From NCBI GenBank assembly GCA_963920705.1, contig OY987226.1:17052501-17116500 (forward strand): a stretch of DNA of 64,000 bases, written 5' to 3'. The notes below the pieces were generated by a model, which did no database searches, was not told the origin of the DNA, and was given only the letters and a program-made list of their open reading frames with translations. Origin of the DNA: Odiellus spinosus. Lineage: Eukaryota; Arthropoda; Arachnida; Opiliones; Phalangiidae. Below, piece after piece: positions 38 to 28,587 of this stretch; within the stretch, counting starts at the first letter, position 1, and every line of letters starts with the position of its first letter. A program made the position numbers and the translations under genes.

Positions 38-266
38 GATTTTGTTTTACAAAGACGTTGGATTATACGAAAAGGGAATTCGGAAAATTATGCATGAATC
101 ATTAAAATGTTTAGGACCGAACATTTTCTCCGAGTCCGACAAGATAACGTTGGAATCCATCAAATTAGTTGATGTCGCTAGTTTGTTCAAACTGTGGGCC
201 ATTGGCCTGAGTTTGTCTACAGCAATTTTTGCATTCGAGCGCTTACAGGGACGTTATTACGTTTGA
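38..266 (+). CDS. IR-A: last exon of an ionotropic receptor (IR-type) gene, 5' part outside window
   Basis: This exon starts after the acceptor TTTTTTCTCAG at 37 with one base completing a split Arg codon, exactly as in the last exons of IR-B, IR-C and IR-D. It encodes RILFYKDVGLYEKG..., then a hydrophobic segment (VDVASLFKLWAIGLSLS...) ending in E, and stops at 264-266. Seen directly: the end of the S2 ligand-binding half followed by the last membrane helix M4 and a very short cytoplasmic tail. Family knowledge: this is the C-terminal layout of ionotropic glutamate receptors and arthropod IRs, ligand-gated cation channels of the plasma membrane. It is closest to the IR-B last exon, so A and B form a subfamily. 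All upstream exons lie before base 1, so intactness cannot be judged. Confidence 0.72.
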
Positions 267-1724
267 GGTATTACGGAAAAGAAGATTAATGGAAAAACAT
301 AATCCATATCCGTTTTTATCTTAGAATATTATCCGTGATTTACGTAGGGATAAAAAATTTCAAACTTTATTTTCGTGAAAAATAATGAATAAAAAGACGA
401 TTTAAAATCTTAGTTTCGTTGCTTTATTCATACTCTTCAAATTAAAAATCAATTTGAAATATTTTTCTTATATTTTAGACTAATTCCGGAAATGTGAATT
501 TTCTTATCCATCGTTATACGTTTGAATACGAGTAATTTGTTCGTAGATAAGGCGCCAAATGATTATCTTCGGGTAAACCTTATACATTGAACAATTTTAC
601 GAATATACAATTTTTTAGCTCCAAAAATTTACCCCAAGTAAAATATCTGAAAATATACGAATAACAGACGATAATAGATATCCGATTCCGAGTTCTACTT
701 CTATTAGATCATCTCGTCATTGGTTCTAAACACCAAATATTATTATAATAGTCCACAATAAGAACGATGAATATTTAATGGATAAAATCCAATCATGGAG
801 AATGGTTAATACGCAACAAAAAAGAGAACGCAATCTTCTTAGTAAGTAATAAGTCACGCGATACTAAATGTATTATCGCGTTCGATTTTTAATGATACTT
901 CGGACAAGCTGGATCGCCATATGGAACGAGATAAAATGTATTCGGGACATCTCGTTATTTTAAGTTTGACTCGTAACTTATTCGTGATGACGTTTGATCA
1001 ATATTTTAGTTAGTCGTTTTAATATTGCATTTAAAACCTCGCGTTGAGTAGATAAAACAGAATTCTCATTCGCAAGAATAAAAGCGCTTTTCGAATGATC
1101 AAATTCAATACACGCGGACCGTACCGACAAACATGTAAAAAAGGCCACAGCTTGTTTAAGACAAGTTTTTAAAGTTATGAAATAATTCAAACCGAGAGTA
1201 ACTGTAAGAGTTAATTCGTTAAAGTGGCAGTGAAGGGAAAACATATTTCTTCATAATAAAATATTCTAATGTAAATCTAGATGTTCGCGTGACGCACCCG
1301 TAGATTAAGGCACCAGCTATAACATGGCACGAGTCGCGTGTTTACCGAATTTCGATCGAGGTAACGGAGTTATCATAATTTTGGAGCATTTTTGCAACCA
1401 CTTCAAGCATTACTGGGTCAAGTCAGTTAATGTCTATATATATTAAAAAATCTCAAAATCAAATTTTCAATTAAAATATTTTTAAAACAATTACTGTGGT
1501 TGAAGAATCACGTCGTCAAATCATTTTTAAATTAGGAGCACCATTAATTGAATTTTGAAATTTATAACAGGATTTCGTGAGTTACTTGTTAATTTATTTC
1601 AATTATTTCGTCAATGATCGTAAAATTTGGGAATACATGTGCTGATTTCGGATTTCGACCCTTCCCATTTTTATGTATCTTATCCAAAAATGAATTTATT
1701 TCTGTCATAACCAATGGTCCTTGT
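267..1724. other. Intergenic, IR-A to first hAT-like element
   Basis: No coding exon was recognised. Roughly 430-697 resembles the 3' half of the 527-bp hAT-like element at 1725-2251: the ends ATCCGATTCCGAGTTCTA and GATTCCGAGCTCTA match, and the internal text ATTATCTTCGGGTAAA is similar. It looks like an old, diverged copy. No target duplication was found for it. Confidence 0.4.
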
Positions 1725-2251
1725 TAGAGTTCGGAATTCTAATAATTTCGTTAATTGAATAAGACCATCGTGAATTTCAATCAGATATCATCCGTTCGCG
1801 AAAAAATATCCATTTCTTATTCGAGTTAACGAATCGGAATGCAAGGCATTGTTATAGGAAATTGATACGCTAAACGAGTTATTCATTCGGATAAGAAAAT
1901 TTGAAACTCAATTTTTTTGGCGGATTTTAACCCAAATTGAGCTAAAATGCAGTTAATTTAGTTCAGTTCTTTTCAATTTAGATTAAAATCTAATTATTAT
2001 ATCTCATTCTACACGGATTTCGAGAAATATCATATTTTTATCTTCGCATTATCCGTTTGAATAAACGCGTAATTTGTTTATCAATCAAGATTAAAATAAT
2101 ATTTCTGGATAAATTTCTGGATAATTCTTATCCACTTGATATGTCTGTTAATATTATTTGTTGCTTTATATCAACAAAAAATTAAAATATCTGAAAAAGT
2201 CTAGTTATCAATGGATATCCTAAGCTACTCATTATCCGATTCCGAGCTCTA
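1725..2251. mobile_element. hAT-like non-autonomous element (copy 1, 527 bp)
   Basis: The element starts TAGAGTTCGGAAT and ends ATTCCGAGCTCTA, a short terminal inverted repeat. It is flanked by the exact 8-bp direct repeat GTCCTTGT at 1717-1724 and 2252-2259. An 8-bp target duplication with TAGAG-type ends is the hAT superfamily signature. There is no transposase reading frame, so it is MITE-like. A second copy at 5193-5730 has its own target duplication, which confirms mobility. Confidence 0.82.
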
Positions 2252-2474
2252 GTCCTTGTTCTTGTTCCCTCCATTCCCTAGATGCGAAGAGACCCGGTTT
2301 TAATCTATTCGCTCTGATCAAATATTTACTTGTGGCTACAAATTTGATATTGAATTGCATTTTTAGATCTACAAAACGGTGGCTGAAGTCGTTTAGCAAA
2401 TCAAAAAGTGATATTATACTGTATTTGAGTACATCTAAAGGTTGTTTCTTGTAACTGTTACTTGGATTCCGAGA

Positions 2475-5400
2475 ATGCCCACAGCGTATGAAAACTTCAC
2501 AATAAAATTGGGTATTGTAAATGTAAGAATTATTTTTTCCAAAATACAATTCATAATATAGTTTATTCTATATAGCAAGATAATCCACAAAAAATAACTC
2601 CAGTGCATATATTGTTAGCGCGATTTGAATGGAACTTTTAATTATACGCTATATTTGAAAAATATTCGTTATAAATAGTTTGAAACTGTCATAATGAGCT
2701 AAAAGGGATCGACAATAGACTAAGAAGAAGCTATTTTCAATCGAACTGCGTTAACTATCGATTTAACTCTGAAAGGACGAGCTCTTTTTTAGGAAACATT
2801 TCTCGGTTACAAGTGCCATTTCAAAGACGAACTATAGCAATAGAGTGTCAAATAAAACTGAAATTAATTCGCAACTGCAGTGACTCCTTGTGAAAAATAT
2901 TTTAATTAAATGTATAATACCTGCAAAAGAAATGATTGGTTATATGATAATTATTTGCGAATTAACACGAAACCTTTGGGGAGTTGTTTTTATTGTTTAT
3001 AACTTAATACGCGTATTTTAAGTGCAAATCAATTTAAAATAACGATTTTCCACACTCTAATATCTTTTTATTTTAGTTTTGGCCTTCCGTAATTATTTCG
3101 AAAGACACTGGGCAATCCGAAGGATTACTCTACGATCTCTGGGTTTACGTAGCCCAATCCTTGGGACTGAGGTATGGAATAAAGAATTGATAATGTAACG
3201 CTTCTCCGAGTAGTGCGTAAAGAAATTTCATTTAAAAATATAATATTATATTAAATCCAAGCTGTATTGAATTCGATCTCAGCCATTATGGACTCGAAAT
3301 TGAACTTTATAACCATCTCAGAAATAAAGTAATTAAATTAATGGGCTAGCTAGAAATACCATTTATTTATTATTATCTCTCTCGAGTGTTTGGGGGGAGA
3401 TTGGTTTGAACTGAAAACCAGATTTATCAGGCGTGTCTGATACGAGATAAGAAATGCCAGCATGGGAGTTCAAGTTTTTGTTAAAGTCGACGTGATACGA
3501 CACTGTCCAGACAGAGATAGCTCTCATAGATATCATTGCCAGAGGCTACTTAGAGATAATAATAGACTTATGGAAATACTGAAGAATCAATATACATATG
3601 CTAAGTGTTTTAAATTTAAATAGGAAGCGAACGCCGTTGATGTTATTGTTGCGCCTACATTCGCGTTCTCGCCAAAGCTCGATGTTATAATAAGCACGCC
3701 TTTTGATTACTCCTACACAGTGTTAATTAGCAATTTGAGAGGTCAATGCGAATTTACAGCTTACGATCAATATCCAAACGTAACCAATTTGGTAAGCTAC
3801 CACGCATGATGTACCTAATTCGAAAAAAGTCACGTTCGCTTTCTAGTCTTTTCAATTACAATATAAATTGTTTAATATCTAAATTTAGACACTATTAGCG
3901 ACGTTCGCATTCATACTCGCGATCTCGATAATAATTTCCAAGAGCGAAAAGAAGAATGGACTGATAACGTCTTTCTTCGCGATAATTATTACCTTAATAC
4001 GCCAACGTAAGTATATATATATATTGAGGGGTCGGATATTACCAGAAAAAGCTTACGAGAGTTCGAGATCGCAATGTTTGCCGTTAGAGGACGCTTAAGA
4101 ACACTAAGTTTTCTTATTAAACCTTATCTAATTGTTAATAGTCTTATTTAGGGTTATGATATGAGATCTGGTGTCAAATTCACCGTTTGGGTTCTCCGTC
4201 TACCCGAACTTTAGCTAAGACACAATGGGTGCATGGGGTTTTCATTAATGCAAGTTCAAATACAATTTGTTTTTTGGTCAAAGCTATATCTATCAATACG
4301 AAGAAGTTGTCTGCTAGAATAGCGACGGCCTTTCTACTATTGGGTGTATTTCCGCTGATTACGAGATACCTAAACGAAATGAGCGCCAATGTAGTTTCGT
4401 GCAAGGAAAAGATTCCAGACACCTTCGAAGACCTTTTGAAAATGAACAGACCAGCCGCCATATCTGCATACTCCTATGATTATCTTTACATGTTGGTAAG
4501 ATTTTAATTATAATTCCAAAATTTCGATTTCCCCCAAAGCTTTCCTATGTAGCGTACGAACTTATTATAAAATCTAATTTAGTAATATTTTCTCAAAAGG
4601 GAAAATTTAAAATAGTTCTAAATTTCGTTTTTACCCATAACCTTTTAAAAGCTAATATCATTAAAGGGTTACTAGTCTCTGGAAACAAGTTCTTTTTAAT
4701 CGATTTAGACTGTTAAAGTTTGCGTAAAAATATTGTCAACAACTCGCCAAAGGTTCTGTTGTGATTATCAAAGTTGCAAAGTTAACCTCGATGCAATTTT
4801 CAATTTATTTCAAAAGGACATCAATTACTGATTCCAATCGAGTTCGTCTTTGAACTGGCGCGTGAACAGAAATAGATGTTAGTAAGAAATAGAGCGCTTT
4901 ACGAAACATTTTTATACGATATCTCATTGGCATAAGCAAATCATTTTTCTCGAGTCTCCAGTCTAAAATTTCTTCGAAACTGATTTGGCTTAACAAGTCT
5001 AATTCGCGACTTCGAATATTTCCTGCAAATTTCCACGAAACCACTGGTGAGTTTATGTAAGGTTTGTTAAGATTTTTACGCATATTTTAACAATCCAAAT
5101 GGATTATAAATAACTTGTTAGCAGAGTCTAGTCTCCCTTTAACCGGCATTAACTTTAAACAATTATCGAATAGATAGTGGCATAGTTAGATTCAGAGTTC
5201 GGAATTCGTATAACTTTTGTTAATTGAATAAGATCATCGTGCATGTCAATCGGATATTCGTTCCCGAAAAAAATTCTTATTATACCTATTATAGCATAGG
5301 TAACAGTTAACGTATCTGAATGTAAGGCAAACTTAAACTCAAAAATTCGGACATGGAAATTTTATGTTATTCATTCGAATAAGAAAATTTGAAACTCAAG

Positions 5401-7163
5401 TTTCTTTTAACCCAAATTAAGATCTCGAAGCTAGAAATTTATAATTTAGTCGGTCCCTTTCAATATAGATTAAAATACAATTATTATATTTCATTCTACA
5501 CGGATTTCGAGAAACATCACATTTTTATCTTCGCATTATCCGTTTGAATAAACACGTAATTTGTTTATTAATCAAGCCCAAAATTTTATTTCCGGATAAT
5601 CCAAATCCATTTGACACGTGTTTTTTTATATATAATAATGGGTTTTATATTTACTCGAGATTGAAATATCTGAAAAAAGCCTAGTTATCAACGGATATCT
5701 AAGTTATTCATTATCCGATTCCGAGCTCTAGTTAGATTCAAAAACACGCTCTTATCTCCACTATAATGTGTCTATAATGAATGTTAAAACTTCATCATGC
5801 GCAGAATTCTTCGGATACAAATGCCAGAATTTTAGCGGCGAAAATAAAGGAAAGTAACGGACTATTGACTACATGTTATTCTTGTAACGCCTCGATAATT
5901 GAACGCGTGCTTTTGAAGGAGAAACGAACCTTGATCACGAGCTATTTGCCGTTCCTGGCAAATTTGGGGGACGAATGTCTAAAGGGTCACGCCCAAAAAG
6001 AAAAACTGCGTCGTTTAACACTGAGTGTCGGGACCACCCAGTACTATATGAGCGCTCTTTGTATAGCTATGAGAAAAGACCTTCCCAGGGAACTAGTCGA
6101 CTCGATTAACACCAGGTAATATTTAAAAATTTGCCATTCGACCTGTAGCCGATCGAGATGGCAGTCAATACGTGGATATTCATAGCTAAGTGTCCCATCT
6201 TTAGAGATAAAGATTAGTAGCAAAATATGGCGTTCATAAGCTTCCTCTAACGCCAAACTAGGCAAAGTTCTTGCTAACAATAATTTTTCAAATTGACATT
6301 TCAAAACAGTTATAAACAATTTAAATTAAAGTCAACGCGGCTATATTAATTAAAATAGTTTTGTTAATTTTTTAGAAACGTCAAAATAAGTATTCTCGGT
6401 AATAAAAGAAACTAAAAGTAATTAAACTACAAGCTTCCTGGCCATTATCATTCCACAAGTAAAGACTTATAATTTAAAAATAAAATAACAAAACATATAC
6501 GAATTTTGTTGTCACATTTCAAATATTGGTGCTCTACTCGATCTACAGATACTTTACCAATTAGAGGTCGCGGTTTGGACAAGATAATCCATAAATATTT
6601 GGTTAATCAGTCAATTATGAATAATAATCAGTTAAATATTCGCGATTACATTGCATTTATCATAGAGTGAGGGGGCAGACACTGCAGGCGAACTCAGATG
6701 TACAATTTTTTTGAAATCTATGCACTGTCAAAGCTAAACTCAGAGTTCAAGAGAGTTCGAACTCAATGCACTGTCAAAGCTGAACTCCGTGAATTCAAGA
6801 GTGTCAATTGGAAAATTTCAAATTATGAATAAAGATAAAACTTATACAGAAATAATCTTGTTCAAACCCCGACCTCTATTACCAATATATCACATCCCTC
6901 ACATTAATTTCTTTTCTGTCAGGATTTTGTATTACAAGGAGATTGGTCTGTACGAAGTGGGAATGAGTAAAATAATGTTAGAATTATACGAATGTTTGGG
7001 ACCGAAGATTTTCCCGAAGTTCTACGAGTCAAATTTGAAACCCGTCAATTTCGTCGATGTCGCCATTTTGTTCAAACTGTGGGCCATCGGTCTGGCTTTA
7101 TCAACCTTGATTTTCGTTATAGAGTGTGTTAAGTCAATATGCTTCAAATATTACGGAAACTAA
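2475..7163 (+). CDS. IR-B: ionotropic receptor (IR-type) channel, 8 exons, 419 aa
   Basis: Exons: 2475-2522, 3077-3171, 3262-3328, 3624-3791, 3889-4006, 4284-4495, 5805-6115, 6923-7163. Phases agree with IR-C and IR-D, giving 419 residues. Exon 1 (MPTAYENFTIKLGIVN) and exon 2 (FWPSVIISKDTG...LLYDLW) open lobe S1. Exon 4 ends S1 (STPFDYSYTVLISNLRG). Exon 5 holds M1 and the pore loop ending in LIRQ. Exon 6 holds M3, with SANVVSC where canonical receptors have SYTANLAAF. Exon 7 is S2 and exon 8 carries M4. Likely role (family inference): ligand-gated cation channel in the plasma membrane of sensory cells; ligand unknown. Oddities: exon 3 is 8 codons shorter than in its paralogues, and the S1 arginine that binds the ligand carboxylate in glutamate receptors aligns with Pro. 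An in-frame stop precedes the ATG and there is no signal peptide, so an upstream leader exon is possible. Exons 1 and 3 are the least certain. Confidence 0.72.
4661..5142. mobile_element. TTAA-ended MITE in IR-B intron 6 (482 bp)
   Basis: The ends are TTAAAGGGTTACTAGTCTC and GTCTAGTCTCCCTTTAA. Related copies with the same TTAAAGG...CCTTTAA ends lie at 12351-12796, 14017-14508 and 30922-31336. Shared inner text includes ACTCGCCAAAGGTT and AATCGATT. The TTAA could be a tetranucleotide target duplication, as for piggyBac, or part of the terminal repeat. No coding capacity: a small reverse-strand open frame at 4805-5083 lies wholly inside it. Confidence 0.6.
5193..5730. mobile_element. hAT-like non-autonomous element (copy 2, 538 bp), IR-B intron 6
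   Basis: Same family as 1725-2251. It starts CAGAGTTCGGAATTC and ends GATTCCGAGCTCTA. The exact 8-bp direct repeat GTTAGATT flanks it at 5185-5192 and 5731-5738. It ends 74 bp before the S2 exon of IR-B and so forms most of the distal part of that intron. Confidence 0.85.
6562..6878. mobile_element. Second hAT-like MITE family (317 bp), IR-B intron 7
   Basis: It starts TAGAGGTCGCGGTTTGGACA and ends TTCAAACCCCGACCTCTA, an inverted repeat of about 25 bp. The exact 8-bp direct repeat TTACCAAT flanks it at 6554-6561 and 6879-6886. It contains a tandem duplication around ATGCACTGTCAAAGCT (about 6720-6780). It ends 44 bp before the last exon of IR-B. A reverse-orientation relative lies at about 38450-38572. 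Confidence 0.85.
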
Positions 7164-9089: not shown

Positions 9090-12000
9090 ATGTCTTTCAA
9101 TAGTAGTAATAACTTAAGACTCGGAATATTTGAGGTAGGTTGTAGTTTGTGGGTAACATTTTAATAGCCCTTTAAGTAAAATCACTTTCAATGGAGAAAT
9201 TATACTTGACAATGGAGAAATTATACCATCCATATACTGGTCAAAAGAAACCTCAGTACGTTTTATCGCTACGTGTTGAGATTCTTTGAGAGATCTCCAG
9301 GTTTGCGAGTTTTAAATTAATTGTTAAGACCTTTAAATGATTTTCGAAATGTGGGTTTTTCTTTGCATTTAAATATGCTCCCATAGAATAATCAAAGAAA
9401 ACGATTTACCGAAAGGGCCAAAAAAATCTCATTTGGTCAAAATTGGAATATTTCTTCAGAATTCGACCGAATAGACCAAATAAACAACTCAATAATTTTC
9501 CTTTTTGATCCAATTTCTCTGTTTGGTCGAATTCGGATGGTTTCCCTTTTACTGAAAAAGCTCATTTTCAAGTGATAAGCTTTTGGAAGTTGCCGCCGAC
9601 TTATCTTTATAACAAATTACATATAGAATTGGCCTTTATCCACCGTTTCAACCGAGGGTAAAGTCAGCGGAGTCGCCTACGATTTGTTCAATTACTTGGT
9701 CAAGTCTTTAAAGTTAAAGTAAGAATTTAATACTTCAAAACGACGGTATCAGTCATAAATATCATGGCTCCCACAAAGTTTATAAAATACCTAAAAAGTG
9801 GCCATTTTCAATGTAGTACCTTATTAAGTATAGCGAGTAAAAGGAATAAAGCTTCAAAATTGCCTGCACAATTTCTTGGGAAAGGGTTTAGTCGAGCTCA
9901 AGCTCTGGTTTCGTCCCACGTTTTAGCAGACGATTTTTCGTTTTGGTTTATACTCCCTTTAAAAACCTGAAATTTTCCACTTTAAAACGCCCTTCCCTTA
10001 TACCCTTTTCAGACGAGGCGTAACTAGCCGGTTTAATCAGATTTAACCAGGGTTTAATCAGATTTAACCAGGGTTTAATCAGATTTAACCAGGGTTTAAT
10101 CAGATTTAACCAGGGTTTAATCAGATTTAACCAGGGTTTAATCAGATTTAACCAGGGTTTAATCAGATTTAACCAGGGTTTAATCAGATTTAACCAGGGT
10201 TTAATCAGATTTAACCAGGGTTTAATCAGATTTAACCAGGGTTTAATCAGATTTAACCAGGGTTTAATCAGATTTAACCAGGGTTTAATCAGATTTAACC
10301 AGGGTTTAATCAGATTTAACCAGGGTTTAATCAGATTTAACCAGGGTTTAATCAGATTTAACCAGGGTTTAATCAGATTTAACCAGGGTTTAATCAGATT
10401 TAACCAGGGTTTAATCAGATTTAACCAGGGTTTAATCAGATTTAACCAGGGTTTAATCAGATTTAACCAGGGTTTAATCAGATTTAACCAGGGTTTAATC
10501 AGATTTAACCAGGGTTTAATCAGATTTAACCAGGGTTTAATCAGATTTAACCAGGGTTTAATCAGATTTAACCAGGGTTTAATCAGATTTAACCAGGGTT
10601 TAATCAGATTTAACCAGGGTTTAATCAGATTTAACCAGGGTTTAATCAGATTTAACCAGGGTTTAATCAGATTTAACCAGGGTTTAATCAGATTTAACCA
10701 GGGTTTAATCAGATTTAACCAGGGTTTAATCAGATTTAACCAGGGTTTATTCAAAATTAACCGAGGTTTATTGAACTGAATAGGCTATGTAAACCTCGGT
10801 TAGATCAGATTAAACCACGGCTAATTACGCCTCGTCTGAAGAGGGTATTATGCACAGCCGAGCTTCGACTGTGGAATTTGCTATGTCTGCTAAGCTAGAA
10901 AAGATGGAGACTTTAAAGGGGATTTAAAAATCGCAGATAATCCCTTTAAGAGTTCACGCTTTCCTAAGAAAAGACACTTGAAAATAATACGCGTACGTGT
11001 AGCTTAACGAAATTCTGTTAAAGGCTTTTGTCACTCCATGCAATTAAAATTTAGAGCAGAACGATGTACTATCAAATTAATGTTTTTTTTAACCAGTTGT
11101 ACCGAAGTGAACTTGGGCCAACCAACTTTTGAGGGAAAAAATGAAAGAGGAATTTGGAGTGGAAGCTTCGGGCATTTGCAGACTAAAGTAATTAAACGTT
11201 GGCTAGTTGGAATGGAGAGATTTCGCATGAATTGATTTACGTATGATACTCGTGCATGTAATTGTCACTAACAACATATTCAAGGATGATATCCTGGGTT
11301 TCGTAATTTGGCTTATTTTCTTCAAATTCTTTAGCAAGGCTTACGATTTTGCCTACTGTATATGTTTAAATTATAAATAAAAACTAGGGGAGGGGGCAAC
11401 AATCTTGAATAGGAGGTGTACATCCGAATTCAGCTTTGACAGTTTATCAATCAAGCTTAAAATTTTATCTCCGGATAATTCTTATCCATTTGATATGTCT
11501 GTTTATATAATTCAATGTAATTTAATATTAACAAACAATTTATTGGAGATTAAAATATATGAAAAAAGCCTAGTTATCAATCTTAAGTTACTCATTATCC
11601 GATTCCGAGCTCTAAATACAGTACAGAAATTCTTACTTTTAAACTTATCAGTTAACGCGGTAATAAATCTAACTATAGTCCCCGGAAGTGGATGTCTTAC
11701 TATTGGATTCGTACGCCAGGGAGGACCGTTTCGGTGACATGAAGTTCACAACCCCCTTCGACTTCACCTACACTGTCCTTGTTTCGAATTTAAAAGGGAA
11801 ATGTATCATCACGACTTACGGATTGTTCCCGGAAGTTTCCCGACCAGTAAATACTTTTTTTATAGTGTGATAACTATAGTTGATTATTTAACTAAAAGAC
11901 AATTTTGCAGGTGGTCATCATAACAACAGCGATCTTGGTAGTCGTGTCAATTATTTTATGGCTCGATCAGATTCGAAATTCTTTCTATAACGTTTTAATC

Positions 12001-15000
12001 GTATATGTAGTCACCGTATTACGTCAACGTAAAACTGACAAATTAATCGGCCAGCCATAAGTGAATTTATTTCTAGAATAGTATTCCGCGCGTGTTCAAC
12101 AAATTGTTGAATATATCTTTAAAAGGAGAAGGAGTGATTTTCTATTGATTCCTTATCGCTCTAAGCAAGATATTACAAACAAATATAATTTTTTTTACTC
12201 GGCTCGTTGCTATAAAAAAGTCTCCGACCAACACGGAAAAACGGGCGCGCTTCTTTAGCATCGTTTGATTCGTCTAAGACCCGTTAACGACGAAATATCA
12301 AAATCTTCACGCATCCGTGTTAAGCCTTTTTTCTAGTAAGTTAAAAGGGGTGTCCAACAATATTTGTTTGACTTTTTACTATAGTAAATGTGACTGTTTC
12401 AGCAATAAGAAATGAGAAAACATTCGTTATCGCGCAGTTTGAAATTATCACATGCGTACAATAACGTATCAAAACTCGCCAAAGGTTTCGAGGTAATTTA
12501 CAGTTAAGTCGCGAACTATAGACTAGCTAAGCCTAAATCTGTTTAGGAAGAAATTATAGACTGGAAAATTCCTGGAGAAAAGTTAGTTGCTGATGACTTT
12601 GAAATATCATATAAAAGGGCGTCGTGAACCAACTTTCAAGCCCGCACTTTTTCTAGCAAACCGAGATATTCCAAAGACAAAACTCTAGGACTGGCATCAC
12701 CAATTGACTACTTTGAAACAAAAAAGACTTTGGGCGAGTTTTGACAATGATTTTAGGCATTTTTTAATCGATTTCCAGAAACTAGTATCCCTTTAAACAA
12801 AAATTATCACGTAAGATGAATACAAAACCTGAGAAACCAAAAATAGAGGGTTGTATTGAACATATTTTAAGGGCGCTTCATTTCTATATACGTCTTGAAA
12901 CTTTTCAAATTCATTTTCATTTCTATTAGCAATCATGTTGCTATTTATTCTAACATAAATTCACTTGCGTTGTTTGAGTGATTTTCTATTAAGTATTAAA
13001 TAATCATAATTGAAATTTTGGGTTGATAGCCGTAACACGAGTACCAAGGTGGATTTCGGGAAGACTGGCTTTCGGATTTCTACTAATAGGATTTGTTCCC
13101 TTAATAATAACATTCTTATGCGAAATGAGAGCCAATTTGGCTTCATGTTCCGAAACATCGCCCGAAACATTTGCTCAAATAATGGGAGAAAATAAATTAG
13201 CATTCGTCTCGAGAAACTCGCCAGATATTTCAAGTTTAACAGTAAGTTAATTTCAAGGTAAATAATTGCCTATGGGGGTGATGACGTCAACACTAAAAAT
13301 GTTCATGTATTCTAATTCCCGTGAAATTACCAGCTAGTGTCAAATTTTAATATGTACGTGTTTCGCTTTATTCAAACTAATTGTTTTAAAGGAAATTAAA
13401 CTTCAAGCTAAAAATGGAACAGCTTTTCAATAGATAAATATATAAAAGGGAGGAGTCCTTTTTCGTAAGTTGAGCGTCGACGTCACCTGTGACGTTTCTT
13501 GTACAGAAACACGGCGCCCGCAGTCAGAATGACAAAATTCTAAAGATATCTAGTTTTACTCTTAAGCTTAACGCCTGCTTTCTCCGCGCCTGCGCTCTTT
13601 ATACATCCGGAACTCTAGGGGATGAGTGACGTCTACAGTGACGCGGCCGCTAAACTAACAAGTTGATCAAGCCGAACTGAGCTATTTATATAATCATCTA
13701 TTTAGTTTCGGAATCAACAAAAACGTATTTTTATTAGACCCGTTTTTGGTGTTTAACTTTAGAAATTAATTTACGTTTGAATGTTAGTAAGCATAAAGTC
13801 GGGTCAATCATATTATTTCAACCTTCAACAGCACTTGTAATGTCCTAACAGTAAAAGAATAGGCCTGCGTATGACGCTTAAGGTCTTGGGCATCTACAAC
13901 CTTATCTTTACAATATCTTTGGTTCGAAGGCATAACCGCATCCTTAAATACTCTACACTGATTATATCTTTAGTGTAAAGCAAATACGCATTCAATTACG
14001 TAACACTTCCGTACAGTTAAAGGTATACTTTGAAAACAAATGATATTTAATCTAATTAGAATGTTAATATACCAAAAATCATTACGAAAACTAGGCCAAG
14101 GTTTCATGGTAATTCGCGGTTAGTTTTCAAAGGTGCGAAATTAGGATTCAAAACATTTTAAGATTTATTTCAAAAAGACTGAACTGCGGATTACAACTTG
14201 ATTATCTGAGAGGTCGTCTTTGAAATGGCGCATGAAGCCAATGAGATATTTGTTAAAAAAAGTGCAAGCTTTAGGGTTAAATTAAGTAGAGTTAAACTAT
14301 ATTTCATTGACATTAGCAACACAACTTTCTCGAGAACTTTTTCATTCTAAAATTTATTTTCAACGGATTTAGGCTTAGCGTGTTTAGTTCGCTACTTTGA
14401 TAACAAACTGTAAATTACAGCGAAGCCTTTTTTGAGTTTTGATTGGCTTTTACTCGTATTTAAATTTTAACTACGCAAATCGATTAAAAATAACTTGTAT
14501 CCCTTTAAATCTTCAGACTTGACCACTGATTACGTAAAATTATCTAATAAGTTCAGAATGCCCTTAGAATATTTCATTTAAATTAGTTTACGTAACATTT
14601 TTGTTTAGGAATCGAAAGACGTCTACGTCCGAAGTGTTATGGGCCAAATCAGAAGTACGAACGGATTTCTTTCTGGGGACTATCACGACTATTGGTCGCT
14701 TAAAAAGGTTTTCATCGAAGAAAATCGAGTGTTCATTACTCCCAAACAATCATTCGTATACAATTTGCATCAATTATGCGTGAAGGATGGACTGGCTCGC
14801 CAATTACTTCAAAAATTAAAGCTAAAACTGGGCTCGATCAAATACTTCATGAAATGCGTCTGCTTAGCAACGAGAATAGATTTTCCTGAGCAACTACTTG
14901 AATTCATGAACAAAGGGTAATCTAATTAAACAATTAAATAGATGCTCAAAGGACTCTGAGCATTCGAATGAAATTGAAAAATCTGGGTTCGAAGAACGTT

Positions 15001-21000: not shown

Positions 21001-22586
21001 TTCGCCTACTATCCTAGTCTGACTTTTTTACGCGAGTGAATTAGCGTTCCTAGCGGCTCGTAAGTGAAATAAAATAGTTGAAGCGCGAAATTCAAATTTT
21101 ACTGTTTTTTTTTAAAGCCTACCAATTCTAAAAAAAATATCGAAACTTCTTTTAGGCCTATGTCTATTCTTCGTTCGATAAGGCTTATCAGCAGCATAGA
21201 TCATGTTGTTATCGAGTGGATATCGTTATGAAGCGTTACCAAATTGCGCTATTTTTTAATCATTCTTGATTGAATTTTACACTATTTTGTTTAACTGTCG
21301 AAGATTGAATAAAAACAAACCCGGGAAACAAAACCCATTCTCCTATGAAAGATTTACTCAAAATATACGCAATGAAACTTGAATTAGTAGGATTAAAACC
21401 AATTCGAAGATGTAAGCGTACAAATTTTAAATATGTGTTATTTAAATTTAAAGAATTAAGTCACACACCGAGCGGTCTTTGTCACACAAGTAATAACGAG
21501 CGAAGACATTGTAAATGTGGTAAAACGATAAAATAATACACTGACCCTTATATTTAATTGGCCAAAAGCCTAAGCTCGATAAATGTAAGTTTCAAGGTCT
21601 ATAGAGTTTTTATAAAATTTACCGCAGCAAGGTCAAGACTCATAATTGTACAACTTTGTAACTATCTATGGGGGCTACACATTTATCTGGAGAGATTGGT
21701 GGAGCTTCTGTCGTGTAACTAATTAAGAAAGGGAAGTCGAGGGGGAAGTCCCTCTAGGTTCTGTTCTAAACCTGAGTTCACGTGATTCAGCTTTGATTGT
21801 GTAAAGAGTTCGAACTCTTGTGAACTCCAAGTCCAGCTTTGGTCGGGTTAAGAGTTCAAATATTTTGCACACCTGACTTCTCAAGTGTCTGGGAACTCCG
21901 CTAATTAGCTAAGAAACTGTTCGAGGCATTTAGGAGCATTAGTTGACAAATCTTCACCAGAATTTGCTGAGTTAAACGGAAACGAACTAGGCTCTTAACG
22001 CTTCTAGGAAATGTACTCAATTTCTGGGGGTTCATTGAAATCCCACTATGGGTGTTGTCAACGAACATTTTTTAGATTTTCTTGTCTGCGAACCGTTCTT
22101 TAATTAGTTAATTTCATGATTCTGTCATAGGATACGAATTAAAATAGTGTAAACTAGGAGATTTAAAATTCCAAATAAAAACACGTCGTTCTAATGGGTT
22201 CAGAAAAGTAGTTTGGCCAAATTAAATTATTTTGAAACAAAGTTGTTTCCCAGTGCGAATGAGCCTTTATTTTCTTTATGGTTAACCCTTGAGTGTAATG
22301 GATTGTTTAATCGATCTATTTTGTTGCGCGCAGGATTCTAATCTATTCGGAGGCGGGGCTATGGATTTACGGAATGGAACGAATCGAAAAAGACTTCATA
22401 AAGTGCGTGGGTTCAAACGTGATAACGGGCGGCCTCGCCCGAAGTCAAATTCAATTACATCCGGTCAGTCTGTCCGGAGTGGTCATTGTCTATAAATATT
22501 GGATCATCGGAATCGCAATCTCTGGTTACGCGTTCGTCATCGAAATGTGCGTTTATAAATGTTTACGTTGTACTTCGAAAAATTAA
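9090..22586 (+). CDS. IR-C: ionotropic receptor (IR-type) channel, 8 exons, 428 aa
   Basis: Exons: 9090-9134, 9627-9718, 11097-11187, 11679-11846, 11911-12028, 13030-13241, 14609-14916, 22334-22586; all phases close. Exons 1-4 form S1, starting MSFNSSNNLRLGIFE and ending with DRFGDMKFTTPF. The Arg in DRF has the spacing before Phe seen for the carboxylate-binding Arg of glutamate receptors. Exon 5 is M1 (MWLDQ-like, here ILWLDQIRNS) plus a pore loop ending in VLRQ. Exon 6 is M3, with CEMRANLASC in place of SYTANLAAF. Exon 7 is S2 (SGDYHDYWS...) and exon 8 has M4 and a tail of about 14 residues. Predicted role by family: odorant- or taste-type cation channel subunit in the dendritic membrane; ligand unknown. 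It is very close to IR-D in sequence. Odd points: exon 3 starts with Cys where IR-D has Trp; intron 2 carries a minisatellite transposon; intron 7 spans 7.4 kb and holds another minisatellite and a foldback element. The ATG follows an in-frame stop by 27 bases, and no signal peptide is visible. Confidence 0.8.
10001..10847. mobile_element. PIF/Harbinger-like element carrying a minisatellite (847 bp), IR-C intron 2
   Basis: The left end TACCCTTTTCAGACGAGGCG and the right end CGCCTCGTCTGAAGAGGGTA are inverted repeats. Homology continues inward through TAACTAGCCG and the GGTTTAATC...AACC stretch. TTA flanks both sides (9998-10000 and 10848-10850), which fits the 3-bp TWA target of PIF/Harbinger. 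A TA duplication (Tc1-like) cannot be excluded. There is no transposase. The interior is almost wholly the 21-bp array at 10030-10750. Confidence 0.65.
10030..10750. repeat. 21-bp minisatellite, about 34 copies
   Basis: The unit is TTTAATCAGATTTAACCAGG plus G, repeated with almost no variation. The unit is itself two related halves (TTTAATCAGA and TTTAACCAGGG). The unit resembles the subterminal sequence of the transposon that contains it, so the array probably grew from the terminal repeat. Its length is a multiple of three, which produces a spurious reverse-strand open frame. Confidence 0.95.
11447..11614. mobile_element. Truncated copy of the 1725-2251 hAT-like element
   Basis: It matches the 3' third of the elements at 1725-2251 and 5193-5730, from GTTTATCAATCAAG through TTATCTCCGGATAATTC to the end GATTCCGAGCTCTA. 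The 5' part is missing and no paired target duplication was found. It ends 64 bp before IR-C exon 4. Confidence 0.65.
12351..12796. mobile_element. TTAA-ended MITE in IR-C intron 5
   Basis: It starts TTAAAAGGGGTGTCC and ends AGTATCCCTTTAA. The inner inverted text AAAACTCGCCAAAGG...CTTTGGGCGAGTTTT is shared with the copy at 4661-5142. It begins where the similarity between introns 5 of IR-C and IR-D breaks off. Confidence 0.5.
14017..14508. mobile_element. TTAA-ended MITE in IR-C intron 6
   Basis: It starts TTAAAGGTATAC and ends TAACTTGTATCCCTTTAA. Its interior aligns with the IR-B intron 6 copy (for example AAAAAGACTGAACTG versus AAAAGGACATCAATTACTG, and CTTTGAAATGGCGCATGA versus CTTTGAACTGGCGCGTGA). 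Confidence 0.55.
15095..16842. repeat. 27-bp minisatellite, about 64 copies, IR-C intron 7
   Basis: The unit reads GTTAAGTCAGGTGAGGTCAA then GCGAGAG, nearly invariant over 1.75 kb. The + strand is purine-rich. Each unit contains CAG/GTGAGG and GAG/GTTAAGT, which resemble 5' splice sites, and one AGGTCA. The 9-bp word GGGATGGTG occurs just outside both edges (15051-15059 and 16845-16853). The length is a multiple of three without stops in several frames, so long open frames here are artefacts. Confidence 0.95.
17896..19648. mobile_element. hAT-like foldback element (1.75 kb) with nested insertion, IR-C intron 7
   Basis: The left end CAAGGTTCTTTTAGGAAGG and the right end CCTTCCTAAAAGAACCTTG are perfect inverted repeats. 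The 8-bp direct repeat AATTTATC flanks them at 17888-17895 and 19649-19656. The arms pair over hundreds of bases (left to about 18868, right from about 19005) around a spacer of about 140 bp. The left arm carries three tandem copies of a segment of about 60 bp containing AGCGCTTGTAGCGCCAAATT (about 18385-18540) where the right arm has one. The left arm is interrupted by the 280-bp element at 17922-18201. No transposase frame. Confidence 0.85.
17922..18201. mobile_element. 280-bp MITE with 9-bp target duplication, nested in the foldback element
   Basis: It starts AAGGAGGATTAGACAAGGAG and ends CTCCTTGTCTAATCCTCCTT, an inverted repeat of 33 bp with one mismatch. The direct repeat GGTTATGCC flanks it at 17913-17921 and 18202-18210. 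The opposite arm of the host foldback (around 19620-19635) preserves the uninterrupted site with one copy of GGTTATGCC (reverse strand), so the duplication is proven internally. A 9-bp duplication suggests Mutator-like or Merlin-like transposition. Confidence 0.87.
19955..20392. repeat. Imperfect tandem duplication of about 200-250 bp, IR-C intron 7
   Basis: Two diverged copies both begin TTGTAATTCATTTAGCACA (about 19959 and 20206). They share ATTTCACTTT, CCGACTGACACCG and GAGAATGGCGAAAACGTGG / GCGAATGGCGAAAACATGG. No coding capacity was seen. Confidence 0.6.
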
Positions 22587-22645
22587 AATTATTTGGATAT
22601 ATGACGTCCCATTTTGATACGGTACAATTGTTTGGGAAAATAATT

Positions 22646-23183
22646 CTAGGAAAATTTGAGATAGAAATCTAGGAACATTTTGAGACACAAATCTGGGAAA
22701 CTTTTGAGATACAAATCTGGGTAACTTTTGAGATACAAATCTGGGTAACTTTTGAGATACAAATCTGGGTAACTTTTGTGATACAAATCTGGGTAACTTT
22801 TGAGAAACAAATCTGGGTAACTTTTGAGAAACAAATCTGGGTAGCTTTTGAGATACAAATCTGGGTAACTTTTGAGATACAAATCTGGGTAACTTTTGAG
22901 ATATAAATCTGGGTAACTTTTGAGATATAAATCTGGGTAACTTTTGAGATATAAATCTGGGTAACTTTTGAGATACAAATCTGGGTAACTTTTGAGATAC
23001 AAATCTGGGTAACTTTTGAGATACTAATCTGGGTAACTTTTGAGATACTAATCTGGGAAAATTTTGAGATATAAATCCGGGAAACGTTTTTGAGATAGAA
23101 ATCTAAGAGACTTCGGAGACAGAATTATTGGAAAAGGTTTGAGACAGAAATCTAGGAAAAGTTCGAGACAAAATCTGAGAAAA
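22646..23183. repeat. 24-bp minisatellite, about 22 copies, 60 bp after the IR-C stop codon
   Basis: The core unit is AAATCTGGGTAACTTTTGAG then ATAC. Units at both edges are more diverged (TCTAGGAAAATTTGAGATAG) than the centre. It may lie in the 3' UTR of IR-C. The unit length allows a spurious reverse-strand frame of eight-residue repeats. Confidence 0.9.
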
Positions 23184-24352: not shown

Positions 24353-27300
24353 ATGGTTTTCAACGGAAGCAGTAACCTAAGACTCGGAATACCTGAAGTA
24401 AGTTAATAAACCTAATTCTTTAATATTCAAATTATTTAATAGATTCACAAGGAGACACTGTAAAAGGATGAAGAAATTGCTTTAAAACGCGGACAGGAAA
24501 TACATTTTTGCTTTCGTTAAACAGAATTCAGTGTCTTCTTGTGGAATTAATATTGGTCTTAAATAATTTTTACCCGAAACAATAATAGTAGTTTTAAAAT
24601 AATTAAAATTATTAATCATGGTGAAATATAAATTTTAATTATTTTTATTTACGAAATGATATTAAATGGATTGAAAAGGACTTAATTCTTTTGAATGAGT
24701 CGTTTTTATGGAAATGTCTTAAAACAGGTATGGCCATTATCAACAATTTCAGCTCGGGGTAATGTCAGCGGAATAGCTTACGATTTGTGGAAATACTTGG
24801 CAAAGTCTTTGAAATTAAAGTAAGTACCTTAAATGTCAATATTTTAAGTGTGAAACACTTCAAAATGAATCTAGTTAAATTATTTGATTACTAGCCATAT
24901 ATTTTTGACTTTTTAATTCTGAAGTTTCCTAAGACGGCGGGCGTCAACCCAGATATAATTGAATATGGCATTTGAAAACTGATATATGATAAATAGGCTT
25001 TCGAAAACATGATGACAGCCTCACTTTAAGAGAAAACACACATAGAGAGACCATTTGATTTTTTGAGATTCTAAAAAATGTTTAAGAAACATGAACCTTA
25101 TTTAAATATTTAGTTTTAGGGATTGTTTAAGATTTAGTGAATTTTTGTGAAACTAGGATAGGGTATAGGCCTACCTTTTTTTTTTGTTGCGATTTTCGGT
25201 TTTTATAGATTACTAAAGATTTACTTTTTACTCTTTAAGCCGGATTCACACAGACTTATTTTCACGCGTTTCATGCTCGCGCGCTAATGGTACTTCTATG
25301 AGCGCACGAGCGTGAAACGCGTGAAAATGGGTCTGTGTGCATCCGCCTTTAGATTTTGTTACTTGACTTTTCCTATTTTCGTTAACGCTGCGCGACAATT
25401 AAGCTAACGAGCCAACGACGACAAGGAATATAAGAGCTAAACCCACTCCCAGGGGGGGTGGAAAAAACGAGACCGTGCATATTAAAGCCAAAAATCACCC
25501 CGAATTAAAACGGATTTTTTTTTTTTTTACAGTTGGACCGAAGTAAAATTGGGCCAACCTTCTTTTGAGGGAAAAAATGAAAATGGAATATGGGGTGGAA
25601 TTTTCGGACATTTACAAACCAAAGTAAGTATCGTTCAATTTCAAACGCGAGATTTTAGATATGGGTATAAATTATTAATTATAATAATTGGATTGTAGTC
25701 CCCAGAAGTGGACGTCTTGCTATTAGATTCGTACGCCAGGGAAGACCGTTTCGGGGACATGGAGTTCACGACGCCTTTCGACTTCACCTACACGGTCCTG
25801 GTTTCGAATTTAAAGGGGGAATGTATAACCACCACTTACGAACTGTTCCCGGAAGTCTCTGGACCGGTAACTGTCAAAATACGAAGGTATTTTAAAGAGT
25901 AGCCTAAAGAAACGGGTACATTTCAAAGGTGGTAATCATGACAACGGTCATTTTGATGGTAGTTACTACCATCATGTGGCTCGATCAACTGAGAAATTCG
26001 TTCTTCAATATCCTAATCATTGCCTGTATTTTACGCCAACGTAAATATTAATATTTTGGTTGATTTGAGGGAGAATACTGATCGTCAAAAATCAATTTTC
26101 TATCTGAAATTCATTACCGTTTAAATAGGCCTAATCCACTAGCAAAATATTTACCTGGAAGGTAGGCTTAACGAGGATCCATGGGGAGTTTGATACCTCG
26201 CCATTAACTAGTCTCCGATAACCGAGCATAAGCGAGCGTCTCTAAAGCCTAGTTTGAAAGGTTTATATTCATAATAATAGAAGTAATATTTACTGTATTC
26301 CGACTCATATTCAAGGGAAGAGCCTAACAAAACTTTATAAAAATCTGATTGGCTCTATTGAACCATACCGTTGCTGACGTCAATGGTAAAAACATATTTG
26401 GTTGCCCTGGTTACGTTTAGTAGGTAAAACCCGGTTTTGCCTAAGGGATCTTAAACTAGGACGAGCCAGAAAAACATTCCTTTATTAATTTATTTATTAA
26501 TTCCTGATTGCACTGTAGGAATAAATCGCGTGATTCGCCTGTGGCTCGTTAACAACGAGATATCAAATTTTCCAAGGATCCCTGTTAAGTCTACTTTCCA
26601 AGTAAGTTAGAAATTGATTTCTTTCTTAATATTTGTAATTTTTTACTGTTGGAGTAGGCTTATTTGAACGATAATAAATCTACAATTGCAATGAGGAACA
26701 CACTTAATTCTCTTTTTAATGTTGATTTCCCTTTCGTAACAGCTGTACCTAGCGCACCAAGGTCAGTTTCCGGTAGAATCGCTTTAGGGTTCCTTCTCTT
26801 GGGTTTAGTGCCCTTAATCAACTCGTTCTTATGCGAAATGCGAGCTAATCTGGCTTCGTGTTCCGAATCATCGCCCGAAACCTTTGCCCAAATATTGGAA
26901 GAAAACAAATTGGCATCAGTCTCCAAGTATTCACCCGATATGTTCAGTTTAACAGTAAGTTACTTATGTAAATTAAGATACTTAACAATTCAAGTGACGC
27001 TGTCATAATTTTCTTAGAAGATATATATAAATTCGATTTTTAGCTTTTTCATACCAATGAAAACACATTTTCAAAATTTTACACCTTTGCGTTGATGCGT
27101 AAAGAAAGAAACTTAAAAAGTAAAAAAATATATTTTGTTGCATGATAAAGTGGATTATTGAAATAGCTCATTAAGGATAAATGGAAGGGGGTACTTTCTG
27201 GATTAAGTACAAGCGACCACAGTGAACGTAGAATGATTCTAAATTTTTCGATATTTTTTATTTTTTTACTTTTGTCACAATTACAAAAAAAAATTTTCAA

Positions 27301-28587
27301 TCCTTTTTTAATACCATGAAAAACCGGTGATAGCATCACTTTTAACTATATTCATACCAGTCACTATGAAACCGTTTTAGAACGGTGAAATTGTTAAATT
27401 TTCGGGTCAACTGATAGCAATAGATTAATCTTAAAATATGGACACTGATTACACAATTGCGTAACTGCAGAAAGCCTTTCAGAACCGTCACCATGAGGAT
27501 CCGTATATAGGAACTGCCCCACCAAGAATCTGATTGGCCCTACCTAAAGTTTTGGGCTGGTGCTGGGAGAAAAGATTTGTAGGTTGACCCTACCTTAAAA
27601 TTTGGGTTAGTGGCGACCGAGAAGCCTTTGATTATATTAAATTACGTAGTAAGTTTCAAATCCTCAAATGCGATTGGGACTTTTAGGTTTAACTCGCGTT
27701 CAGAACATTATTAGAATTATTTTCAGGAAATGTGTTTTTTTTTTTTTTATTTCTTTTTCGAAAGAAATCGAAGGATATCAATGTTCGAACTGTTATGGAG
27801 AAAATCGGAGCCACGAAAGGGTTTCTGCCTGGAGATTATCACGATTATTCTTCTCTTAAAAGGGTCTTCATCGAAGAAAATCGGGTTTTCATTACACCCA
27901 AACAATCGTTCTTAAACAATTTACACCAATTATGCATGAAGGAAGGAGACACTCGACAATTATTCAAAATCCTCAAACTTAAACTGGGCTCGTTCAATTA
28001 CTTCATGAAATGCGTCTGTCTACCAATCAGAATCGATTTTCCAGACCAATTACTCGAAGACATAAACAAAAGGTACGTCATAGCACTTTTTATATTTCTC
28101 TATTGTTACATATAGTAATAAAGCCTTGCTCAATTTGTTTCTTTGGCTTCATTGCCTACGTCACCTGCATTTCCAAGAATTTTTATTTTTTGACTACCGC
28201 TATATTCTCTACACTTATAAACTATTATTGACTTAGAACCAAGTAGTGTCGTTGCGTGAACGATCCTTCACCCCGATAAGCTTTCTTGATTGCATAATCT
28301 ATATTTCGATCGCGCATAGGATTCTAATCTATTCGGAGGCGGGGTTATGGATTTACGGAATGGAACGAATCGAAAAAGACTTCATAAAATGCATGGGTTC
28401 TAACACGATAACGGGTGGGCTGGACCGAGATAAAATTCAATTACATCCGGTCAGTCTGTCCGGAGTGGTCAGCGCCTATAAATATTGGATCATCGGAATC
28501 GCCATTTCTTGTTACGCTTTCGTCATCGAAATGTGCGTTTACAAATGTTCACGTTGTACTTTGAAAATTAAAATTATTTGGCACTAA
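24353..28587 (+). CDS. IR-D: ionotropic receptor (IR-type) channel, 8 exons, 431 aa
   Basis: Exons: 24353-24397, 24728-24819, 25533-25623, 25699-25866, 25929-26040, 26743-26954, 27765-28072, 28320-28587; all phases close. Residues 1-132 are S1: LRLGIPE, VSGIAYDLWKYLAKSLKL, WTEVKLGQ, IWGGIFGHLQTK, then DRFGDMEFTTPF, whose Arg has the glutamate-receptor spacing. About 133-169 hold M1 and a pore loop ending in CILRQ. About 180-205 hold M3, with CEMRANLASC replacing SYTANLAAF. About 241-342 are S2 (LPGDYHDYSS, FITPKQSF). M4 is about 389-413, followed by a short basic tail. By family it is a ligand-gated cation channel of sensory membranes, probably needing co-receptor subunits; ligand unknown. 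The pore exon is two codons shorter than in IR-B and IR-C. The acceptor at 27764 is chosen over one at 27726 because only it preserves frame and homology. Two in-frame stops precede the ATG and no signal peptide is seen. Confidence 0.82.
25239..25352. mobile_element. Palindromic MITE, IR-D intron 2 (about 114 bp)
   Basis: The left arm AAGCCGGATTCACACAGACT and its continuation TTTTCACGCGTTTCATGCTCG pair with the right arm CGAGCGTGAAACGCGTGAAAA and GTCTGTGTGCATCCGCCTTT. The arms of about 50 bp leave almost no loop. A target duplication could not be fixed. Confidence 0.7.

What the first reader, a model, noticed from the sequence alone, without database searches (positions are those of the whole stretch)
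38..28587. Tandem array of four truncated-type ionotropic receptors recovered from tiny exons
Seen: four copies of the last exon and three complete eight-exon sets with the same order and split codons (exon lengths 168, 212 and 308-311 are conserved). Most exons are 45-210 bp and would be missed by open-frame scanning. Family knowledge: the S1-M1-pore-M3-S2-M4 order with LRQ...P...S.R and ANLA near M3 is that of ionotropic receptors. A/B and C/D are two subfamilies sitting in blocks, so the cluster grew by at least two duplication rounds (inference).
Basis: partly seen in the sequence, partly recalled or inferred. Interest (0 to 1): 0.72.

Follow-up and report, generated by a model that had tools for sequence, protein, structure and literature searches.

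The report
Harvestman array of minimal ionotropic receptors
The window holds the tail end of a tandem array of divergent chemosensory-type ion-channel genes (ionotropic receptors) of a harvestman; such arrays are a known kind, but these genes seem to start directly at the ligand-binding domain, without the usual signal peptide, and share an arginine in the channel pore.

Summary
Copies B, C and D are complete eight-exon GT-AG genes; copy A has only its last exon in the window, its other seven lying just upstream. The genome matches the harvestman Odiellus spinosus, chromosome 2. The array is larger than described: 23 copies, all on one strand, over about 168 kb. Sixteen are uninterrupted; the four pairs tested with intervals have dN/dS of 0.19-0.51. 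Taken singly, the window's own proteins stay below Pfam cut-offs, but two paralogues (N5, N6) pass that of Lig_chan-Glu_bd. A family profile hits solved glutamate receptors (best E 4.8e-10, all 60 rows shown of 225); a profile of reversed members hits none. They are therefore divergent ionotropic receptors. Less ordinary: an ATG at the very start of S1 is present in 22 of 22 first exons; in 6 of 22 an upstream coding exon is ruled out for canonical splicing. So a signal peptide seems to be missing, although all 22 carry an N-glycosylation sequon there. The pore has Arg at the AMPA-receptor Q/R position in 23 of 23. Function and expression were not tested.

The parts
38..266 (+). copy A, exon 8 (S2 end, M4, stop); exons 1-7 lie upstream of the window at -5033 to -1642
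2475..2522 (+). copy B exon 1: start ATG, NFT sequon, first S1 strand
3077..3171 (+). copy B exon 2 (S1)
3262..3328 (+). copy B exon 3 (S1, short form, 67 nt)
3624..3791 (+). copy B exon 4 (end of S1)
3889..4006 (+). copy B exon 5 (M1 and first half of pore, ends LIRQ)
4284..4495 (+). copy B exon 6 (rest of pore, M3, start of S2)
5805..6115 (+). copy B exon 7 (S2)
6923..7163 (+). copy B exon 8 (S2 end, M4, stop)
9090..9134 (+). copy C exon 1 (start ATG, NSS sequon)
9627..9718 (+). copy C exon 2 (S1)
11097..11187 (+). copy C exon 3 (S1)
11679..11846 (+). copy C exon 4 (S1, keeps the ligand-site arginine)
11911..12028 (+). copy C exon 5 (M1, pore, ends VLRQ)
13030..13241 (+). copy C exon 6 (pore, M3)
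14609..14916 (+). copy C exon 7 (S2)
22334..22586 (+). copy C exon 8 (M4, stop), after a 7.4-kb intron that holds a 27-nt minisatellite
24353..24397 (+). copy D exon 1 (start ATG; in-frame stop upstream and no AG between)
24728..24819 (+). copy D exon 2 (S1)
25533..25623 (+). copy D exon 3 (S1)
25699..25866 (+). copy D exon 4 (S1, keeps the ligand-site arginine)
25929..26040 (+). copy D exon 5 (M1, pore, ends ILRQ)
26743..26954 (+). copy D exon 6 (pore, M3 with RANLAS)
27765..28072 (+). copy D exon 7 (S2)
28320..28587 (+). copy D exon 8 (S2 end, M4, stop); last gene of the array as far as 20 kb beyond the window

Best explanation
The window shows the right-hand end of a 23-copy tandem array of divergent ionotropic receptor (IR) genes on chromosome 2 of the harvestman Odiellus spinosus. 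Each gene encodes one subunit of a glutamate-receptor-like ligand-gated cation channel reduced to ligand-binding lobes S1 and S2 plus M1-pore-M3-M4. Most likely each is a ligand-tuning subunit (taste or smell) that assembles with an IR25a-like co-receptor, of which this genome has several loci. Shown here: gene structure, homology, intact frames under purifying selection, three subfamilies. Inferred: expression in sensory neurons, ligand sensing, partner. Also inferred, from an invariant ATG: the protein starts at S1 without a signal peptide, so M1 itself would have to carry the N-terminus into the ER lumen, where the conserved sequon could be glycosylated. The Arg fixed at the Q/R position predicts low calcium permeability, by analogy with edited GluA2.
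For: Exon order, phases and open frames in the 16 complete copies. Profile A4 (seven members) against PDB: 225 sequences at E up to 1, best 4.8e-10 (GluK3), the 60 shown all glutamate receptors, aligned from S1 through pore and M3 into S2. A profile of six reversed members, not the same set as A4, gave 8 unrelated hits, best E 0.44. N5 and N6 pass the Pfam cut-off for Lig_chan-Glu_bd, from profile position 3 at protein residue 9. dN/dS 0.19, 0.51, 0.47 and 0.42 in the four pairs given bootstrap intervals, all upper bounds below 1. ATG in 22 of 22 first exons; purine at -3 in 21 of 22, AG at -2,-1 in only 9 of 22; 6 of 22 have an in-frame stop upstream with no AG between, four of these six being complete genes. 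Sequon in 22 of 22 first exons against a shuffled mean of 5.1 and maximum of 12. RQ at the pore in 23 of 23. IR25a-like pore exons in the same genome (name recalled).
Against: The window's own proteins miss every Pfam cut-off singly, and one complete member (N4) matches nothing at E up to 1. No expression data: RNA-seq listed for this species is from abdomen only and could not be mapped. Seven of 23 copies are incomplete or interrupted in my models. In 16 of 22 copies an upstream coding exon is not excluded; in type 1 the bases from -10 to -1 are conserved (majority base in 64-100% of 14 copies), which fits a start context but also a former splice acceptor. Signal peptides diverge fast, so the upstream comparison is weak. 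Sequons are not confined to the predicted outer segments: 64 in 5131 outer residues against 6 in 814 inner ones, and the outer total (64) only just exceeds the shuffled maximum (61 in 1000 shuffles). The charge rule around M1 fails in 2 of 16. No ligand or partner was tested.
Confidence: 0.78

Rival explanations
1. The genes are ordinary divergent IRs with a normal signal peptide encoded by an undetected upstream exon; the apparent start at S1 is an annotation gap, as usually assumed for IRs.
For: Croset et al. 2010 (PMC2924276, passages seen) report that most of their annotated sequences encoded no N-terminal signal and treat this as incomplete 5' ends. The sequon in exon 1 needs a luminal N-terminus, which a cleaved signal would give. 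Nine of 22 copies have AG just before the ATG, and in type 1 the last ten bases before the ATG are conserved.
Against: In 6 of 22 copies (N2, N3, G01, G03, G04, D; N2 and G03 are not complete genes) an in-frame stop stands upstream with no AG between it and the ATG. The ATG is kept in 22 of 22 although AG before it is not. No upstream segment shared by more than 4 copies was found, while the 12 best segments of a control over exons 1-4 match 15-21 other copies.
Confidence: 0.35
2. The array is largely dead: a relic cluster drifting to pseudogenes.
For: Seven of 23 copies have missing or broken exons, and orphan exons lie at -112577 and -56782. Three dispersed copies on C1 and C84 (L031, L032, L033) have exon 4, 7 or 8 split into pieces.
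Against: 16 of 23 copies are uninterrupted over about 1.25-1.37 kb of coding sequence in eight exons, with dN/dS clearly below 1 in the pairs tested.
Confidence: 0.08
3. They are not chemoreceptors but glutamate-gated or regulatory subunits of synaptic receptors.
For: Superfamily match is to iGluRs; types 2 and 3 keep the S1 arginine that binds the ligand carboxylate in 8 of 8 copies (register).
Against: No amino-terminal domain; identity of D to six members of other types is only 32-36%; 13 of 15 type-1 copies lack the S1 arginine. A lineage-specific tandem array is the pattern of chemoreceptors rather than synaptic receptors (own knowledge; Croset 2010 passages on IR arrays).
Confidence: 0.07

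Closest known systems
Divergent ionotropic receptors of arthropods (e.g. the IR94 and IR52 clades of Drosophila; the IR expansion of the centipede Strigamia maritima)
   Same: S1-M1-pore-M3-S2-M4 order, no amino-terminal domain, loss of ligand residues, tandem arrays, low identity (Croset 2010 and Strigamia genome paper, passages)
   Different: Eight small exons, where divergent IRs of a mosquito have 0-3 introns (PMC5769321 passages); coding starts at S1, while tuning IRs of Drosophila have about 200 residues before S1 (PMC7882480 passages)
Drosophila IR84a / IR8a complex
   Same: Model for a tuning subunit plus co-receptor; Q/R-position residue known to govern calcium permeability (PMC7882480 passages)
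   Different: IR84a has Gln at the position; here Arg in 23 of 23. Deleting the short N-terminal region of IR84a abolishes normal cilia targeting, yet here that region seems absent
AMPA/kainate/delta glutamate receptors (GluA2, GluK3, GluD1)
   Same: Collinear match over S1, pore, M3 and M4; the GluA2 chain aligned also has Arg at the Q/R position
   Different: No amino-terminal domain; the M3 end SYTANLAAF (recalled) is reduced to forms such as EMRANLAS

Membership tests
ionotropic receptor / iGluR superfamily | ligand-gated ion channel core homologous to Lig_chan and Lig_chan-Glu_bd | tested here: met
   Met by family profile (E 4.8e-10; control of reversed members negative) and by N5 and N6 over the Lig_chan-Glu_bd cut-off. 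Not met singly by A, B, C, D. The Lig_chan cut-off is met by none of the 16 scanned (9 members, judged from its best E of 0.00056; 7)
ionotropic receptor / iGluR superfamily | S1 - M1 - re-entrant pore - M3 - S2 - M4 order | tested here: met
   Alignments; hydrophobic peaks for M1, M3, M4 in 16 of 16
IR subfamily (as against iGluR) | loss of one or more glutamate-contact residues | tested here: inconclusive
   Met for the S1 arginine in 13 of 15 type-1 copies; not lost in 8 of 8 type-2/3 copies nor in G08 and G09 (register). The S2 contact residues were not tested by any search
IR subfamily (as against iGluR) | no iGluR amino-terminal domain (except IR8a, IR25a) | tested here: met
   coding starts at S1 in 22 of 22 copies with an exon 1, with the reservation on upstream exons in 16 of them
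tuning IRs | signal peptide and about 200-residue N-terminal region before S1 | tested here: not met
   absent in all models; upstream coding exon excluded for canonical splicing in 6 of 22, unlikely but open in 16. This is where the family departs from typical tuning IRs; it does not define the superfamily
chemosensory IR | expression in peripheral chemosensory neurons | not testable with these tools
   no expression data held; public RNA-seq is from abdomen

The most novel reading that the evidence does not exclude
In harvestmen a whole IR lineage has lost the signal peptide and everything before S1: a bare flytrap-plus-channel receptor whose N-terminus is carried into the lumen by M1 and glycosylated at a site kept in every copy, with arginine fixed in the gene at the Q/R position, giving a large family of chemoreceptors predicted to be nearly calcium-impermeable.
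Probability: 0.45. Interest if true: 0.6.

Novelty: new variant of a known kind. Interest (0 to 1): 0.4.

Why it matters
I found no paper on ionotropic receptors of harvestmen in the held library (none by title among the 1 of 1, 3 of 3 and 12 of 18 papers listed; listings only). The array shows how far an IR can be stripped down and still be kept by selection. The question whether missing signal peptides in divergent IRs are real or annotation gaps becomes directly testable: 22 aligned starts, six of them closed upstream. The fixed pore arginine gives a sharp prediction about calcium permeability.

Tried and rejected
Single-protein Pfam scans of the window copies were inconclusive and were supplemented by profiles. 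N1: the script closed its frame, but the exon 3 it chose scored 11 and looks unrelated, so N1 was dropped from the count of complete genes and from the dN/dS and tree sets. G12 would be complete with a GC donor (GCAAGT) after exon 6; it is counted as incomplete. An upstream signal-peptide exon was sought by comparing 46,390 bases upstream of 22 first exons; 36 cross-copy hits, the widest segment shared by 4 copies of different types and looking like a repeat. TATA and Inr-like motifs near the ATG showed no common pattern. Q/R residues of other members in this genome could be read only in part: of 8 loci, Pro in four IR25a-like ones, His in one and Gln in one glutamate-receptor-like locus, two not visible; of 6, Pro in one IR8a-like locus, three NMDA-receptor-like loci with AAVNVDCP, two not visible; of 6, one may have Glu, the rest not readable. 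Structure prediction and fold search were not run: the rule admits proteins that the DNA gives letter for letter, which a spliced protein does not clearly satisfy.

Full report
OBSERVATION. In D the eight exons have GT-AG borders and join to an open 431-aa protein ending at 28587. The same structure was found for C (428 aa) and B (419 aa; its third exon is only 67 nt). A has only exon 8 in the window; with the flank its eight exons give 418 aa. The joins have phases 0,2,0,0,1,0,2; the search for C, B and A used the phases and GT-AG rule of D as constraints, so these are fitted, while the open frames and the matching peptides are not.

WHERE. The window is C2:17052501-17116500 of a 443-Mb genome. 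Contig C2 has 34,489,198 bases, C1 35,433,943 and the mitochondrial contig 16,074. The genome note for Odiellus spinosus (PMC11503004; abstract, outline and genome report section read) gives chromosome 2 as 34.49 Mb, the longest scaffold as 35,433,943 bp and the mitochondrion as 16.07 kb.

EXTENT. Neighbouring DNA carries the array leftwards. I count 23 copies, all on the + strand, from window coordinate -139639 to 28587, about 168 kb, plus an orphan exon 8 and an orphan exon 1. The 10 kb further left gave no exon hit at E below 0.05, and nothing was found from D to the end of the 20 kb fetched beyond the window, at E 0.001. Related exons lie on C1, C3, C84, C87 and C202 (the tool scores only the best candidates). 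Sixteen of 23 copies are uninterrupted with canonical splice sites; N1, N2, G02, G03, G05, G08 and G12 are not, in my models.

SUBFAMILIES. A tree of 16 complete copies (midpoint root) separates type 3 (N3, N5, N6; 100/100), type 2 (C, D; 100/98) and type 1 (11 copies including A and B; 100/99, with G04 on a long branch). dN/dS was 0.187 for C-D (interval 0.138-0.242), 0.506 for A-G13 (0.349-0.737), 0.474 for G07-G11 (0.333-0.658) and 0.416 for N4-G01 (0.303-0.568); five further pairs gave 0.34-0.56 without intervals. By these overall ratios the proteins are constrained.

FAMILY. Singly, the copies are faint: D matches SBP_bac_3 at E 0.00097 and Lig_chan-Glu_bd at 0.0033, B Lig_chan at 0.01, C SBP_bac_3 at 0.02, G01 nothing relevant, all under cut-off. 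Of the nine scanned, three match Lig_chan (best E 0.00056) and four SBP_bac_3. Of seven more, N5 and N6 pass the Lig_chan-Glu_bd cut-off (32.1 and 39.2 bits against 30) and that of SBP_bac_3, N3 misses the former by 0.2 bits, and N4 matches nothing. A profile of seven diverse members finds 225 PDB sequences at E up to 1; the 60 shown are all glutamate receptors, best 4.8e-10. An earlier profile of nine gave 76, of which 60 were shown, 55 of them glutamate receptors and 5 bacterial-type binding proteins, best E 0.0044. A profile of six reversed members (a different set from the seven) finds 8, none a glutamate receptor, best 0.44. An S1-only profile of types 2 and 3 finds 365, best GluK4 at 5.5e-6, and aligns its conserved Arg with the S1 arginine of glutamate receptors. 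That arginine is present in 8 of 8 type-2/3 copies and in 2 of 15 type-1 copies, G08 and G09.

START. All 22 copies with an exon 1 have ATG at the same point, followed by an N-X-S/T sequon whose Asn is residue 4 or 7, and by the first S1 strand. The sequon is in 22 of 22; shuffling the exon's residues gave a mean of 5.1 and a maximum of 12 in 2000 runs (the copies are related, so they are not independent). Position -3 is a purine in 21 of 22; AG stands directly before the ATG in only 9 of 22. In N2, N3, G01, G03, G04 and D an in-frame stop lies upstream with no AG between it and the ATG, so no coding exon can be joined there by ordinary splicing; four of the six are complete genes. In the other 16 it cannot be excluded, and in type 1 the bases from -10 to -1 are conserved. 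Three dispersed copies that I read (L031-L033), which look broken further on, start the same way. S1 has no hydrophobic stretch like M1 (19-residue peak 0.52-1.52 against 1.65-2.74); the 8-residue peak within the first 25 residues reaches 0.37-1.98. The flank after M1 is more positive than the one before in 14 of 16, as expected if the N-terminus faces outwards. Sequons number 64 in 5131 residues predicted outside and 6 in 814 predicted inside; the outer total compares with a shuffled mean of 40.8 and maximum of 61. That the sequon matches one at the start of the GluA2 binding core is recalled, not shown by a call. Literature: Croset et al. 2010 (passages) found most annotated sequences lacking a signal and took it for incomplete 5' ends; a review (PMC7882480, passages) gives about 200 residues before S1 in tuning IRs, needed for normal cilia targeting in IR84a; in a mosquito 26 of 49 iGluR/IR proteins had a predicted signal (PMC5769321, passages); an IR trafficking paper shows that a binding-domain glycosylation site matters for transport of IR8a (PMC6472016, passages). 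The case here is stronger than usual, but is not settled without transcripts.

PORE. Exon 5 ends in RQ in 23 of 23. The R aligns with R of a GluA2 chain and with a Gln of GluK3; that this is the Q/R site is recalled. In IR84a that position is Gln and governs calcium entry. In this genome four IR25a-like loci have Pro there and two glutamate-receptor-like loci His and Gln (names recalled). Whether Arg is common in divergent IRs of other species I did not test.

MECHANISM. Most likely the genes encode tuning subunits of ligand-gated cation channels, partnered with an IR25a-like co-receptor; types 2 and 3 may still bind carboxylates, type 1 mostly not. Homology, structure and constraint are shown; ligand, partner, topology, calcium permeability and tissue are inferred.

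VERDICT. The array itself is ordinary for chemoreceptors (51 of 54 IRs of a centipede fall in one expansion clade; PMC4244043 passages). The apparent start at S1 and the fixed pore arginine make it a variant worth a bench test.

Noticed in passing
G000:C14 near 1.05-1.10 Mb and 9.65-9.69 Mb (loci L002, L003, L004, L008): Four loci read look like IR25a (SLTPQGGGEAP...SGRLVAATWW), a co-receptor that I recall as single-copy in most arthropods; further Lig_chan hits beside them suggest two clusters of several copies. Name recalled, not tested.
   Followed up: partly
G000:C11:17585850-17586150 (L041): Pore exon that looks like IR8a (GGGEAP...VLVAVYWLFVVLILATFSANLSALLTVERM), with Pro at the Q/R position. 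Name recalled.
   Followed up: no
window 15095-16842: Minisatellite of 27 nt, 64.7 copies, 99% match, inside the last intron of copy C, open in several frames; similar 21-nt (10030-10770), 24-nt (22655-23104) and 23-nt (51329-52566) arrays nearby.
   Followed up: no
window about 18100-19700: Segments that match each other on opposite strands at about 50-100% within the last intron of copy C: an inverted repeat, perhaps a transposon remnant.
   Followed up: no
window 58570-63999, - strand: Open frame of 1810 aa running off the window edge, with no Pfam family at E 0.01.
   Followed up: partly
G000:C17 between 1.1 and 4.4 Mb: Several nuclear copies of mitochondrial COX1, four of them with in-frame TAG, on one chromosome.
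   Followed up: no
G000:C84:1146185-1152467 and 1242610-1248892: Two related receptor copies in opposite orientation with the same or nearly the same scores, and similar ones on C1, C87 and C202: recent segmental duplication or haplotypic remnants.
   Followed up: no
window coordinates -16935 to -16880 (copy G12, end of exon 6): Exon 6 is open but its donor reads GCAAGT instead of GT.
   Followed up: partly
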